This document shows positions 1 through 45,775 of a DNA stretch of 64,000 nt, piece by piece. A model generated the notes under the pieces. That model was not told the DNA's origin. It did no database searches and saw only the letters and a program-made list of their open reading frames with translations. Both the position numbers and the translations under genes were made by a program. The DNA lies in contig JAILGE010000035.1 in NCBI GenBank assembly GCA_024697065.1, positions 1-64,000 of the forward strand, given 5' to 3'. The stretch's first letter is position 1. Each line of letters starts with the position of its first letter. The DNA is from Lachnospiraceae bacterium (GTDB lineage Bacteria; Bacillota; Clostridia; Lachnospirales; Lachnospiraceae).

Positions 1-59
1 ACATACTGAATTGCATCCAGCTTAAACTGTTTGTCGTGTTGTTTGTTTTTACGTGGCAT
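1..59 (-). mobile_element. 5' end of an IS3-family-type transposase OrfA, truncated by the window edge
   Basis: Reverse complement of 1-59 reads MPRKNKQHDKQFKLDAIQYV, typical of the IS3 orfA HTH N-terminus; preceded by RBS GAGGAGGAAC. Confidence 0.7.
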
Positions 60-116
60 AATGAGTTCCTCCTCTTTGGATATAGTACAATTTTTTAGGA
101 GAAATCTCATTTTAAT

Positions 117-1541
117 TTGAACTATTTATATACTAACGGCACAGGAAGCTTTTATGATGATAATATAGATGAATTCCTGGATAGTCCGGTAACATATTTA
201 TATGGTTCGTATGATAGATCAATTCGAGAAAGTATAAACCTTGCAGACAATAATGATATTATTATTAATACAGTTTCTATAGCTGCACCGTATGGCGCAA
301 ATGAATACATGGATGAACTCGTACCTAAGACGGGTGGGAAATCCTATAGTGATGCAGATGGAACCGCAGATGGAATGAAAGACCTGATAAATGAGATAAC
401 AAAAGATCTGGATTCTCAGAAAGAAGCTCAGAGACAGGGTGACTATGATGGGGATGGTTTGTCTGATAGAGCTGAACTTGATGGAATGCTTGGAGATAAC
501 GGCCGTAAATACTTTTCCAATCCATTTACAACAGATGTTGATCATGATACTGATGGGGATGATGTTCCAGATAATGTTGAAATGGGAGAATATGACCCTG
601 AAACAGGGATGTACAATGTGTTGAGTGACCCGGCGAATCCAAATTCTATTCCAACTGGTTACATAAGAGTTCCAGTATATATAATTGCGTGGTCGTATGG
701 AACAACATATGATGTTGAACCGTTTGAAAAAAGATTAAAATGGGATGACACATATTCTGATTTAAGAAAAAGTATATCATTGGTAGTCGATGGATATACG
801 GATGAATGGAATCAAAATGTATGGGAAGCCTTTGAAGAACAGAGTTTATTTAGATGGGCTGCAGAAACCAAAAAGCGTGAACTGATAAATAGTGGGATAA
901 GTGAATCTCAGATTATATTGTTAAGGATTGATGGGGGCGCTGAATTTATCAATTACTGGAAGGAATGGCAAACTTATGAGTATATACAGGAACTTCATAT
1001 TTACAGCCATGGCATCTGCGGTAAACCTGAAATGAACAATGGTGGAACCCTTTGGTGGGATGGCAGTAAAGATGGACATTTGAATTCCGTTCCCCATAAT
1101 CCAGATCGAGATTATCCGAAGTTGAATTTCACGGAGAATGCATCGGTTTATTTTTACGGCTGTCATATAGCGATAAATAAAAATGCTGAAGGAAGTGATT
1201 TTTACCCCAATGGAGATGATTATCTTCAGCTATTTTCAGACTATCAACAAGTAAAGGTATTTGCAAATAGGTACGGGACGTCTTTTTCTTCTGATCCAAA
1301 TGTCAAGGAACTGATATTTGAACCGTCTATTCAAAATGTATACTTGGGATCGTATGCTTTGGATGATTTTGTAATGCCACATGAGGATTATAGTGAGAGA
1401 AGTTTGGGGGGGTTTGGAATTGATAATAATTATGCAATTAAGTACTTTGACATGGGGACTCAGGTCAATGAATTTTTTGTTTCGAATAAGTTGAAAAGGA
1501 TTCCGTTTGTGATTTATACACCTGGTGAGCCAATTCAATAG
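117..1541 (+). CDS. VWA-domain remnant + TSP3-like Ca-binding repeats + C-terminal caspase/DUF4347-like domain; probably 5'-truncated
   Basis: ORF starts with TTG without a clear RBS; IIINTVSIAAPYGANEYMDELVPKTGGKSY resembles the VWA C-terminal half; DYDGDGLSDRAE and DVDHDTDGDDVPDNVE are TSP3-like; ELHIYSHG and VYFYGCHIA motifs. Confidence 0.6.
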   Translation: MNYLYTNGTGSFYDDNIDEFLDSPVTYLYGSYDRSIRESINLADNNDIIINTVSIAAPYGANEYMDELVPKTGGKSYSDADGTADGMKDLINEITKDLDSQKEAQRQGDYDGDGLSDRAELDGMLGDNGRKYFSNPFTTDVDHDTDGDDVPDNVEMGEYDPETGMYNVLSDPANPNSIPTGYIRVPVYIIAWSYGTTYDVEPFEKRLKWDDTYSDLRKSISLVVDGYTDEWNQNVWEAFEEQSLFRWAAETKKRELINSGISESQIILLRIDGGAEFINYWKEWQTYEYIQELHIYSHGICGKPEMNNGGTLWWDGSKDGHLNSVPHNPDRDYPKLNFTENASVYFYGCHIAINKNAEGSDFYPNGDDYLQLFSDYQQVKVFANRYGTSFSSDPNVKELIFEPSIQNVYLGSYALDDFVMPHEDYSERSLGGFGIDNNYAIKYFDMGTQVNEFFVSNKLKRIPFVIYTPGEPIQ

Positions 1542-1617
1542 ACATAATTATATTGGTTTTGACAGTTTAAAACAGCGATAAATGGCTCAGTTATCAAGTG
1601 AAGGAAGGAGAGATTGA

Positions 1618-2115
1618 ATGAAGAATGATGAAACCAAGAAATCTATTTCAGAGAGAATAAGGGATAAATTGTTATTATTTATTGCGGCAGCAGGATGTTT
1701 TATTATTCTATTCTTGGTCGGTTCGTTAATATTTGATTACCTTGTAAATCGAATTGAGTGGACGGTTTCAGTTTCGGGAGACGAATTAAGATTGGAAGAT
1801 ACAGTAGAGATTTTGAAAGATGATGGGACATACAAAAAAACAATTCATTGTATAAGAAAACAGGATTGTATTTGGTTTATAGGGGATTACCGACAGTACG
1901 TATACACTATTTACGGACCTGGGGTAGAGTTTCGTCCGGTAATTAAATTTCATAAGATACATCCGGAGATGATTTTAAATGAAAAATATTATATTAATTT
2001 TAATATATATAGAAATGGTGATAAATGGGATGCGACTGTTACGAGAGGAAACCAAACTGAGTATTTTGAGGATATAGAAAATAATGAGATTTATATGGAA
2101 TTCAATGATGTATAG
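1618..2115 (+). CDS. Small single-TM protein, candidate immunity partner of the preceding ORF
   Basis: RBS aaggaaggagag upstream; N-terminal TM LLLFIAAAGCFIILFLVGSLIF; directly downstream of the toxin-like ORF. Confidence 0.5.
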   Translation: MKNDETKKSISERIRDKLLLFIAAAGCFIILFLVGSLIFDYLVNRIEWTVSVSGDELRLEDTVEILKDDGTYKKTIHCIRKQDCIWFIGDYRQYVYTIYGPGVEFRPVIKFHKIHPEMILNEKYYINFNIYRNGDKWDATVTRGNQTEYFEDIENNEIYMEFNDV

Positions 2116-42499: not shown

Positions 42500-42799
42500 A
42501 CAAAGGACCAAATAAAGGAAGACATTATTATTTTTCACGATAGCACCGCTGCGCCGGTGCTATTGTGCCTTAGAGGACATCTGTATGAATACTGTATACC
42601 GGAAGTGCTTATGTTGTGTATAGCAGTAGATTTTTAAATTCGGCCGTCAATAAGCTACGATTATCATATATGGGATTACTACGACTGGGATCCGGGAGAG
42701 GATGGACTGTATTCGCTTAATACGTTTAATTACGCTTGCTATTTTTTTACTATAGGAAAAATGCAAGGAATGGCTTTTACTCATTCTGATTATTTTTGA
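42500..42799 (+). pseudogene. Decayed ORF fragment, continuous frame interrupted by one TAA
   Basis: KEDIIIFHDSTAAPVLLCLRGHLYEYCIPEVLMLCIAVDF*IRPSISYDYHIWDYYDWDPGEDGLYSLNTFNYACYFFTIGKMQGMAFTHSDYF*; no start codon. Confidence 0.55.
42511..42688 (+). repeat. Direct repeat copy 1 bounding the accessory island
   Basis: 178 bp matching 45592-45775 with about 4 substitutions and one 6-nt indel; contains hairpin 42536-42567. Confidence 0.95.
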
Positions 42800-42813
42800 A
42801 AGGGAATGGATAT

Positions 42814-43185
42814 ATGAAAAAGAATAAAAGGCCTCTGATAGTTTTATTAATAATTTTTTTACTGATTTCTATTCCCATTATCATTAAGGGGATAAATAGA
42901 TATGGAAATAATTGGATAGATATCAGCAAGAATCCGGCTATTTGCCATTATGAAGAGAGGGAATATTATGAGATTAGTTGGTCGGAGTATATGGGAATAA
43001 AAGGGGAGGAATTCGAATATATGGACAAGTATATAGTTAATGGGAAACCAAACATAATTATATATTATTTACCAACGATAATGTCGTTTAGGGTAGGGGA
43101 GTTAAGGAATAGTGAAGGTAAACCTATCGCTTTGGTTATTACCGGACATGATGTAGAACAAAGATACTTTAAACTGTCGGAATAA
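42814..43185 (+). CDS. Small single-TM protein, paralog A of the YG-NWID family
   Basis: MKKNKRPLIVLLIIFLLISIPIIIKGINRYGNNWIDISKNPAICHYEEREYYEI; aaagggaa RBS. Confidence 0.7.
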   Translation: MKKNKRPLIVLLIIFLLISIPIIIKGINRYGNNWIDISKNPAICHYEEREYYEISWSEYMGIKGEEFEYMDKYIVNGKPNIIIYYLPTIMSFRVGELRNSEGKPIALVITGHDVEQRYFKLSE

Positions 43186-43208
43186 GATGAGTGACCTATG
43201 AAGAATAA

Positions 43209-43961
43209 AAAGAAAGAAGTATCCGGGATGAAGTAAAGAAATATGAGGAGGGATATCTTGCCTCTCATAATTGGGAGACTGAGACAAGTTGTTGTGATAC
43301 ATCTTTTCTTACAGCTGACGGCGATAATAGTGATTGGATTGATGAAATGTGGGAAGAATTTGACAACACCTGTTCATTTTCAAGAGCAGCACAAACAAAG
43401 AAAAAAGAGCTGATAGAAAAAGGCGTTGCTGAAGAAAATATTAAGTATTTTAGGATTGATGGAGGACAGGAATTACTCGATCTGTGGAATGACACGTGGA
43501 CGGGATATAAAAGAGTGCAGGAACTGCATTTATTTTCACATGGAAAACCGGGGACTCCTGAGGTGTATTGCGGAACTACAGGATATATTTGCGAGGAAAT
43601 TTATAAAAAACTGAATTTCTCATCAAATGCTGGTTGCTATTTTTACGGATGCAATATTGCTAATATTTCTAAATACATGAACAAATTTGCAACAAATCAA
43701 AATGTCATAACTTATGCATTTGATGAGGGAACTAGTTTTTCAGGGGATTACAGTAAGAAAACAAGTATACTTTTTCCTGGTGGAGATGTTTATCTTGCTC
43801 CGTATGTTATCCCCGGAGAGAAATCCTGGCGTGAAGTTGACACCAACGAATGGTATGCAGTTTTGGTAGTGGCACCACGTCAATTAGTATTGAATGGAAC
43901 GCTACATATCAGAGGGCGTAAACCATTTCGTAGGTTTTATCCGGAACAGGGAGATGATTAA
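43209..43961 (+). pseudogene. Orphan C-terminal toxin-like cassette homologous to the C-terminus of 117-1541; no start codon before ATG 43347
   Basis: Open frame from 43209; SRAAQTKKKELIEKGVAEENIKYFRIDGGQELLDLW...VQELHLFSHG...CYFYGCNIA...GTSFSGD aligns with the 117-1541 ORF. Confidence 0.65.
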
Positions 43962-43963
43962 AG

Positions 43964-44476
43964 ATGAAGAAACAATGGATTTGGGGCTGTATTGCGTTTG
44001 TGATTTTTATTTCTTTGAGTGGTTTGGCAATAAAAATGGCAAATGACAGAGCAGGTAAAAAAACTGAATTCAGATATGTGTGTTATATTGATTCCGGAAA
44101 TTATTCTTGTGAGTTATCTAAAGGTTTTTTTGACCTTAATAGGATTGGTTCGGATAAACATCCGATATATGATGCTGAACAAAAAGAAGATAGTATTATT
44201 TTTCACGACATCGCGTATGATGGGGAGTTGCCGACCGAAGTAAATTGTTGGATGGATTTTATAATTGATGGGGAGAATGTTTCTTGTGGAGTGCATTTTT
44301 ATAGATTAGAAGAATGTAAATATAAGGAATGGAAGGGTGATATTATTCTAAAAATAACAAGGAATGGAAATAATTGGGAAATAATTCCTGAATGCACAAA
44401 TTGCGAACGTGTTGAGCTAAGGAACCAATTTAGCGATTCTGAAGGTCAGGCGTATGATTTTAATGTTTATCAATAA
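43964..44476 (+). CDS. Small single-TM protein, candidate immunity partner of the orphan cassette
   Basis: 170 aa, N-terminal TM WIWGCIAFVIFISLSGLAI, begins 3 nt after the cassette stop. Confidence 0.6.
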   Translation: MKKQWIWGCIAFVIFISLSGLAIKMANDRAGKKTEFRYVCYIDSGNYSCELSKGFFDLNRIGSDKHPIYDAEQKEDSIIFHDIAYDGELPTEVNCWMDFIIDGENVSCGVHFYRLEECKYKEWKGDIILKITRNGNNWEIIPECTNCERVELRNQFSDSEGQAYDFNVYQ

Positions 44477-44494
44477 TCCAGTGAGATATTGATG

Positions 44495-44521
44495 AGTCAA
44501 TGGGGACGGTTCCCATTGACT
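44495..44521. repeat. REP-like palindrome
   Basis: agtcaatggg-gacggtt-cccattgact, 10-bp stem. Confidence 0.65.
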
Positions 44522-44549
44522 TCCCCTATTGACTTCCAGGAGTTTGAAA

Positions 44550-44945
44550 ATGAAAAAATATAGTGTTGTTATTGTTTGTGTGACTCTGTTTTTGATAGTA
44601 TCTGTTCCAATTGTAATTAATGGCAGAGAAAGATATGGCAGCAACTGGATCGATGATAGTAAGACGCCTGCTATCTTACATTACAATGATGAGCTTTATT
44701 ATGAAATAGGTGTAAACACATTTAAAGAGGCTTTAGAAAAAGGCGAATATAATTTCGAATACACGGATAGATATCTAACACTTAATGGGAGAAAAGCTTT
44801 TTTATTTGATTACTATATCCCTAAGTCTTTAAATAGAAAAATAGGTGAAACAAAAGATCAAAACGGTATTATTAAGTATGTATATGTTCTTGGAGTTGAG
44901 GATAATGCAAGTTGCTTCAAGCTTTGTGAAGCAGAAGACCAATAA
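44550..44945 (+). CDS. Small single-TM protein, paralog B of the YG-NWID family
   Basis: MKKYSVVIVCVTLFLIVSVPIVINGRERYGSNWIDDSKTPAILHYNDELYYEI. Confidence 0.7.
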   Translation: MKKYSVVIVCVTLFLIVSVPIVINGRERYGSNWIDDSKTPAILHYNDELYYEIGVNTFKEALEKGEYNFEYTDRYLTLNGRKAFLFDYYIPKSLNRKIGETKDQNGIIKYVYVLGVEDNASCFKLCEAEDQ

Positions 44946-45054
44946 TCGCTTGAAAACACGTTATTATTAATTCGCACTATTTTACGAGGCTTCATCAGTT
45001 TGTGTGGGTGAGTAGTAGCATCAGCTACACACCAATTGCTTGTTCTGCTTTACG

Positions 45055-45133
45055 GCTTATCAGCTGGTTAGGTGCCCTGTATCAAGGGTTTCCGCAAAGC
45101 GGCACTTGCGCCCTTGATACAGGAGAGATAAGC
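45055..45133. repeat. Structured inverted-repeat element between paralogs B and C
   Basis: Outer gcttatc/gataagc, inner perfect 13-bp cctgtatcaaggg/cccttgatacagg, nested ccgc-aaa-gcgg. Confidence 0.8.
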
Positions 45134-45189
45134 AGCTATGCAGTGGCAGGCAGAAAATGACTGTAATGAAGAGTTGAAAAGGAAAAAAT

Positions 45190-45588
45190 ATGAAAAAGAA
45201 GAAACTGCAAGCGTTTCTTGTGATATTGATATTATTTATTTTGATTAACATACCAATCTTTATAAGGGGAAACAAATTATATGGTGATAATTGGATAGAT
45301 TTCAGTAAGGAACCTTCTGTTTGCTATTATAATGGCAACGTATACTATGAAATAAGCGAATTTGAGTTTGCTAGAATAGATGGCGAATGGGAATTGATGG
45401 ATAAATGGATATCATGTGACGGGACTAAAGCAAATATACTAAATTATTATTTTTCATTCTTAAGGCTCGATAGAAGAGTAGGTGAAGTGAGAAATGATAA
45501 AGGAACGCCAATAGCTTTACTTATTTCTTCAGACTATGAGAACGATAAGTATAGATACTACAAGTTGTCTGAAGAAGAAAGTCAATAA
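45190..45588 (+). CDS. Small single-TM protein, paralog C of the YG-NWID family
   Basis: MKKKKLQAFLVILILFILINIPIFIRGNKLYGDNWIDFSKEPSVCYYNGNVYYEI. Confidence 0.72.
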   Translation: MKKKKLQAFLVILILFILINIPIFIRGNKLYGDNWIDFSKEPSVCYYNGNVYYEISEFEFARIDGEWELMDKWISCDGTKANILNYYFSFLRLDRRVGEVRNDKGTPIALLISSDYENDKYRYYKLSEEESQ

Positions 45589-45591
45589 TCG

Positions 45592-45775
45592 AATAAAGGA
45601 AGACATTATTATTTTTCACAATAGCACCGCTGCGCCGGTGCTATTGTGCCTTAGAGGACATCTGTATAAATACTGTATACCGGAAGTGCTTATGTTGTGT
45701 ATAGCAGTAGATTTTTAAATTCGGCCGTCAATAACAATAACCTACGATTATCATATATGGGATTATTACGACTGG
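45592..45775 (+). repeat. Direct repeat copy 2 bounding the accessory island
   Basis: 184 bp matching 42511-42688; contains perfect 13-bp hairpin 45617-45648. Confidence 0.95.

What the first reader, a model, noticed from the sequence alone, without database searches (positions are those of the whole stretch)
117..2115. VWA-TSP3 surface protein tail ending in a caspase/CHAT/DUF4347-like domain, with a one-TM partner
Seen: remnant VWA half, two TSP3-like acidic repeats, then a domain with ELHIYSHG (His codon 1008-1010) and VYFYGCHIA (Cys codon 1161-1163). A hydrophobic strand + HG followed later by a strand + GC is the layout of clan CD His/Cys dyads, and YGCN/HxA resembles DUF4347. A 165-aa single-TM protein follows directly. 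Inference: a surface-delivered protease-type effector with a membrane immunity partner.
Basis: partly seen in the sequence, partly recalled or inferred. Interest (0 to 1): 0.75.

Follow-up and report, generated by a model that had tools for sequence, protein, structure and literature searches.

The report
IS-truncated polymorphic toxin tip with immunity
At the start of this contig from a rumen-type Lachnospiraceae bacterium lies the swappable killing end of a secreted bacterial weapon, probably a caspase-like cysteine protease, next to a small membrane protein that probably protects its owner; the same killing end also sits on a quite different kind of weapon (Rhs proteins) in other bacteria.

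Summary
ORF 117-1541 holds a VWA remnant, two TSP3-like repeats, and a tip with SHG (His 1008-1010) and YGC (Cys 1161-1163), followed by a 165-aa single-TM protein. Correction: bases 1-141 are an insertion-sequence end (same 141 bases begin contig C14), so this copy is cut and its TTG start is spurious.

The tip is a C-terminal module of a polymorphic toxin system. I compared eight copies: six from Lachnospiraceae CBM2/TSP3/VWA carriers or as an orphan cassette, and two at the C-terminus of Rhs proteins in other families. All keep His and Cys, and all are followed by one small single-TM protein. In one Rhs array three cassettes share a 91-93% identical core and then have different tips. The carrier bears other tips in related genomes.

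The tip is remotely homologous to DUF4347, whose one solved member, Tce1 (9QPE), has a TcdB-like His/Cys dyad in the same motifs. Fold search was inconclusive; activity, toxicity and immunity are untested. Best reading: an extracytoplasmic clan-CD-like protease toxin with membrane-anchored immunity. C-terminal caspase-like toxins are already known; the DUF4347 type on these carriers is a new variant.

The parts
1..141 (-). end of an insertion sequence; start of a transposase-like frame MPRKNKQHDKQFKLDAIQY at 3-62
   Evidence: identical 141 bases at the start of contig C14 followed by unrelated sequence; 99% copy in L041; translation
142..436 (+). remnant: C-terminal half of the VWA-like domain of the carrier
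   Evidence: 88% aa identity to the C27 paralogue over 83 residues; 85% DNA identity starts exactly at 142
438..650 (+). two TSP3-like acidic Ca-binding-type repeats of the carrier; DNA similarity to C27 ends at 647, just before the tip
   Evidence: sequence, 31-nt repeat, breakpoint
663..1541 (+). C-terminal toxin tip, DUF4347-like / clan-CD-like domain; His 1008-1010, Cys 1161-1163
   Evidence: 8-member family alignment, Pfam DUF4347 weak hit, profile comparison
1618..2115 (+). 165-aa single-TM protein (TM at residues 20-38, N-in/C-out by charge), candidate immunity protein
   Evidence: TM analysis; three relatives in immunity-gene islands
42511..42653 (.). 143-nt direct repeat, left copy, flanking the orphan cassette island
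42808..43185 (+). small single-TM protein of the YGxNWID family (orphan immunity candidate)
   Evidence: alignment
43209..43961 (+). second, orphan copy of the same tip without carrier; His and Cys kept; reaches the DUF4347 gathering score in the genome search
43964..44476 (+). 170-aa single-TM partner of the orphan tip, 2 nt after it
44550..44945 (+). small single-TM protein, YGxNWID family
45190..45588 (+). small single-TM protein, YGxNWID family
45592..45734 (.). 143-nt direct repeat, right copy, 99% identical

Best explanation
The feature is the C-terminal toxin-plus-immunity cassette of a polymorphic toxin system of Lachnospiraceae, cut off from its carrier by an insertion sequence. In intact relatives the carrier is a secreted protein (N-terminal signal-like segment, two CBM2-type domains, TSP3 repeats, VWA-like domain) that presents the tip outside the cell. 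The tip is a DUF4347-like cysteine peptidase of the caspase-like (clan CD) layout, with a His after one core strand and a Cys after the next. I infer that it cleaves an exposed envelope protein of a competing cell, and that the adjacent protein (one TM helix, soluble domain outside) blocks the tip at the outer face of the producer's membrane. Shown: tip family, conservation of His/Cys, carrier swapping, partner position. Inferred: fold in detail, proteolysis, target, killing, immunity.
For: Same tip on two unrelated carriers: CBM2/TSP3/VWA (L018, L020, L037, C27) and Rhs (L019: 18 RHS repeats; L038: Rhs_assc_core). Three tandem Rhs cassettes in L038 share a 148-aa core (91-93% identical between neighbours) that ends at the Rhs_assc_core boundary, then different tips. 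Window and C27 are 85% identical in DNA up to the tip boundary, then about 40% in protein. The carrier bears other tips in related genomes. Orphan tips and arrays of partner genes in C26, C41 and G661. A small single-TM protein follows 8 of 8 tips; background 1 of 28. DUF4347: weak best hit for most members, gathering score reached by the orphan copy, hhalign probability 88% with SHG on SHG and YGC on YGC. The DUF4347 profile finds 9QPE (Tce1) with the same two motifs, and its His186/Cys240 dyad aligns with that of TcdB (PMC13323088). AF2 core: strands 82-86, 108-112 (SHG just after), 151-155 (YGC just after), pLDDT mostly above 70 there.
Against: Foldseek against the PDB gave nothing significant for either model. 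The window tip itself scores below the DUF4347 cut-off (15.4 against 24.6), and hmmsearch of the tips against the PDB found nothing. Tce1 showed no marked toxicity in E. coli or yeast in the 2026 paper, although the group's earlier paper reported a drop in E. coli survival. No activity data exist for the tips. The copy in the window is probably not made as a secreted protein.
Confidence: 0.68

Rival explanations
1. Polymorphic toxin tip, but not a protease: the His/Cys fold has lost or changed its chemistry (for example binding or another transferase/hydrolase reaction).
For: Remote homology only; other strongly conserved residues (R, D of the RID motif, W, AAxT) are not a standard clan CD signature; one member has SHA in place of SHG; Foldseek inconclusive.
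Against: His and Cys are invariant in all eight members over two carriers and several families, as in DUF4347 and Tce1.
Confidence: 0.17
2. The tip is an autoprocessing (releasing) peptidase of the large surface protein, like internal caspase domains in other toxins, and the small membrane protein is an unrelated or accessory factor.
For: Caspase-like domains most often serve as releasing peptidases (PMC3482391); DUF4347 stands near the N-terminus of a large protein in L039.
Against: Here it is always the last domain, with nothing left to release; orphan tips and partner islands exist without a carrier.
Confidence: 0.06
3. Adhesin or surface-binding domain of a fibre-attached protein with a membrane-bound partner as its anchor; no antagonism.
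For: Carrier has two CBM2-type domains and TSP3/VWA modules as in adhesins.
Against: Same tip on Rhs proteins, tip swapping and orphan partner arrays are hallmarks of toxin-immunity systems.
Confidence: 0.05
4. A dead fragment: in this strain the cassette is a pseudogene with no present role.
For: Cut by an insertion sequence at 142; no matching upstream VWA half found elsewhere in the assembly.
Against: Tip and partner reading frames and the His/Cys motifs are intact; carriers with related tips exist in the same genome and in relatives. This bears on the copy, not on the family.
Confidence: 0.04

Closest known systems
DUF4347 (PF14252), including Pseudomonas aeruginosa Tce1/PA0256 (PDB 9QPE)
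   Same: His after a core strand in [ST]HG and Cys after a later strand in YGC; profile homology; Tce1 is a putative T6SS cysteine protease effector (PMC13323088)
   Different: Window tip is below the Pfam cut-off; the DUF4347 domains seen here stand near the N-terminus of large surface proteins, or (Tce1) alone as T6SS cargo with no evident immunity gene; the tip is C-terminal on Rhs and CBM2/TSP3/VWA carriers with an adjacent TM partner
Tox-Caspase of polymorphic toxins (Zhang et al. 2012, PMC3482391)
   Same: Caspase-like H,C peptidase as the C-terminal-most domain of a polymorphic toxin with an immunity gene
   Different: The held text does not mention DUF4347, cellulose or carbohydrate-binding or thrombospondin modules, or Lachnospiraceae; immunity families it lists for Tox-Caspase (Imm36, Imm57) are not described there as single-TM proteins
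Rhs/WapA polymorphic toxins
   Same: The same tip family follows the Rhs core in L019 and L038, with cassette arrays
   Different: Most Lachnospiraceae copies sit on a non-Rhs carrier
Clan CD peptidases (TcdB-type CPD, caspases, gingipains, CHAT)
   Same: Order of strand-His then strand-Cys; 37-51 residues between them (Tce1 54, Tce2 50, TcdB 45 from the residue numbers in PMC13323088)
   Different: No significant structural match obtained

Membership tests
Polymorphic toxin system | variable C-terminal tips on a conserved carrier | tested here: met
   L038 Rhs cassettes with shared core and different tips; CBM2/TSP3 carriers with several tip types; 85% identity ends at the tip boundary
Polymorphic toxin system | immunity gene directly downstream of the tip | tested here: met
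   8 of 8 tips followed by one small single-TM protein; immunity function itself not tested
Polymorphic toxin system | orphan tip and immunity cassettes | tested here: met
   window 42.5-45.7 kb, C41 and G661 islands
Polymorphic toxin system | tip is toxic and neutralised by its partner | not testable with these tools
   needs expression assays
DUF4347 (PF14252) | score over the Pfam gathering cut-off | tested here: not met
   window tip 15.4 bits against 24.6; the orphan copy in the same window 23.7, and 24.8 in the genome search
DUF4347 (PF14252) | [ST]HG and YGC motifs in register | tested here: met
   hhalign of DUF4347 alignment and tips
Clan CD (caspase-like) peptidases | conserved His then Cys, each after a core strand | tested here: met
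   8-member alignment and AF2 strands 108-112 and 151-155 followed by His114 and Cys157
Clan CD (caspase-like) peptidases | caspase-like fold | tested here: inconclusive
   AF2 pLDDT 70, pTM 0.74; Foldseek no match at E<=0.001
Clan CD (caspase-like) peptidases | proteolytic activity dependent on Cys | not testable with these tools
   needs biochemistry

The most novel reading that the evidence does not exclude
A previously undescribed class of polymorphic toxins of fibre-degrading Lachnospiraceae. Cellulose-binding (CBM2) domains moor the toxin on plant fibre rather than on the cell, and the tips are mainly cysteine peptidases (DUF4347-like, C39-like and others) that attack the envelope of competitors, countered by membrane-anchored or lipoprotein immunity on the outer face.
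Probability: 0.3. Interest if true: 0.75.

Novelty: new variant of a known kind. Interest (0 to 1): 0.52.

Why it matters
It ties the functionally obscure DUF4347 superfamily to bacterial antagonism in Gram-positive bacteria, with a candidate immunity partner that Tce1 lacks, so the role of DUF4347-like peptidases becomes testable in a simple toxin/immunity assay. It also points to a non-Rhs, CBM-bearing toxin carrier in rumen-type bacteria.

Tried and rejected
Foldseek of two AF2 models against the PDB: no significant match; caspase-1/-3 and a MARTX cysteine protease domain appear only among insignificant ones. hmmsearch of the tips against PDB sequences: none. Viral-contig scans and plasmids tblastn: no relatives; PADLOC: none. 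A common origin of the partner families was tested and not supported (hhalign probability 2% and 0.2%). A tree of the eight tips was unresolved except C27+L018. The DUF4347 profile's top PDB hits are designed TIM barrels through repeated short matches, judged artefacts.

Full report
Observation. The reading frames, motifs and coordinates are as stated. The window begins at base 1 of contig C26 of a 44-contig assembly. Bases 1-141 recur exactly at the start of contig C14, followed there by unrelated genes, and at 99% in a relative next to a partner-type gene. Their minus strand starts a transposase-like frame. DNA similarity to the longer paralogue on C27 starts exactly at 142. So the gene is cut inside the VWA-like domain by an insertion sequence and the TTG at 117 is not its start. 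No upstream half for this copy was found in the assembly.

Paralogues. C27 carries a 44%-identical tip at the end of a protein whose start lies at the end of contig C41: N-terminal signal-like segment, two CBM2-type domains, acidic linker, TSP3 repeats, VWA-like domain, tip (the join of C41 and C27 rests on an identical overlap of 31 residues). A third copy lies in the window itself at 43209-43961 without carrier, in an island of partner-like genes flanked by 143-nt direct repeats. C38 has a related carrier with a different tip, weakly like Peptidase_C39_2 (18 bits against a cut-off of 24), followed by a lipoprotein-like gene.

Relatives. One scan of GTDB representatives found three further loci, and genome searches added two more tip proteins. 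Members on the same type of carrier: L018 (Lachnospiraceae XPB1003), L020, L037. Members on Rhs proteins: L019 (Eubacterium sp. RGIG7096, 18 RHS repeats) and L038 (another family; Rhs_assc_core 86 bits). In L038 three tandem cassettes share a 148-aa core (91-93% identical between neighbours), ending at the Rhs_assc_core boundary, and then have different C-termini. The tip is rare: 1 of 299 family genomes, 3 of 395 order genomes (one of these through a true DUF4347 protein), 4 of 35 genus genomes, each count including this genome.

Tip chemistry. In eight aligned tips the His of SHG and the GC dipeptide are invariant; one member has SHA. Pfam DUF4347 is the recurrent weak hit, and the orphan copy passes its gathering score in the genome search (24.8 against 24.6). 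An alignment of ten DUF4347 domains matches the tip profile with 88% probability, SHG on SHG and YGC on YGC. The same DUF4347 profile picks 9QPE_G in the PDB with THG and YGC aligned. [quoted passage not shown] AF2 of the L019 core (pLDDT 70, pTM 0.74) gives the strand order with His and Cys each just after a strand, but Foldseek found no significant match. The fold is therefore likely, not shown.

Partner. All eight tips are followed within 2-245 nt by a protein of 154-177 aa (as read here) with one N-terminal TM helix and a soluble remainder; the charge rule puts the soluble part outside in most. Only 1 of the other 28 adjacent pairs in the window looks like this (a rough gene call). The partners fall into several families not detectably related. 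The 165-aa family recurs as orphan genes in C41 and G661 islands. Zhang et al. note that TM or secreted immunity proteins go with toxins acting at the cell surface (PMC3482391); hence the inferred site of action.

Carrier diversity. A carrier profile hits 13 of 35 genus genomes, some only through TSP3 repeats. Ten fetched proteins show several further tip types by eye: C39-like (L080, L082, L089), two NlpC-like in appearance (L086, L088), a pair of hydrophobic-helical ones (L083, L084), and an unknown pair (L081, L085), mostly followed by small membrane proteins or lipoproteins. Pfam recognises few of them. That these carriers act on plant fibre is a guess from the CBM2 domains.

Verdict. A real, 5'-truncated toxin-immunity cassette of a polymorphic toxin system, tip DUF4347-like. 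The kind (C-terminal caspase-like toxin) is known; the DUF4347 type with single-TM partner on Rhs and CBM2/TSP3/VWA carriers appears undescribed in the papers I could search.

Noticed in passing
window 42511-45734: Three-kilobase island of small single-TM genes and an orphan tip between two 143-nt direct repeats (99% identical), each followed by a remnant (DYHIWDYYDW...) of another tip type.
   Followed up: partly
L017 5703-8741 (-), contig C38: Related carrier with a C39-like cysteine peptidase tip (weak Pfam C39_2) followed by a lipoprotein-like gene (LTGC).
   Followed up: partly
L042 2900-6060, contig C41: Cluster of orphan partner genes of at least two families with a tip fragment, between a dGTPase-like gene and an ABC substrate-binding protein; a matching cluster occurs in L041.
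   Followed up: partly
L041 5299-5805: Chimaeric remnant: a 154-bp piece 96% identical to the window tip (830-983) joined to the end of another tip type, a trace of tip recombination.
   Followed up: partly
L038 1850-8784: Three tandem Rhs core-tip cassettes with near-identical cores and different tips.
   Followed up: yes
L087 220-4326: Subtilisin-like domain joined to the same VWA-like domain as the toxin carrier, followed by a single-TM protein.
   Followed up: no
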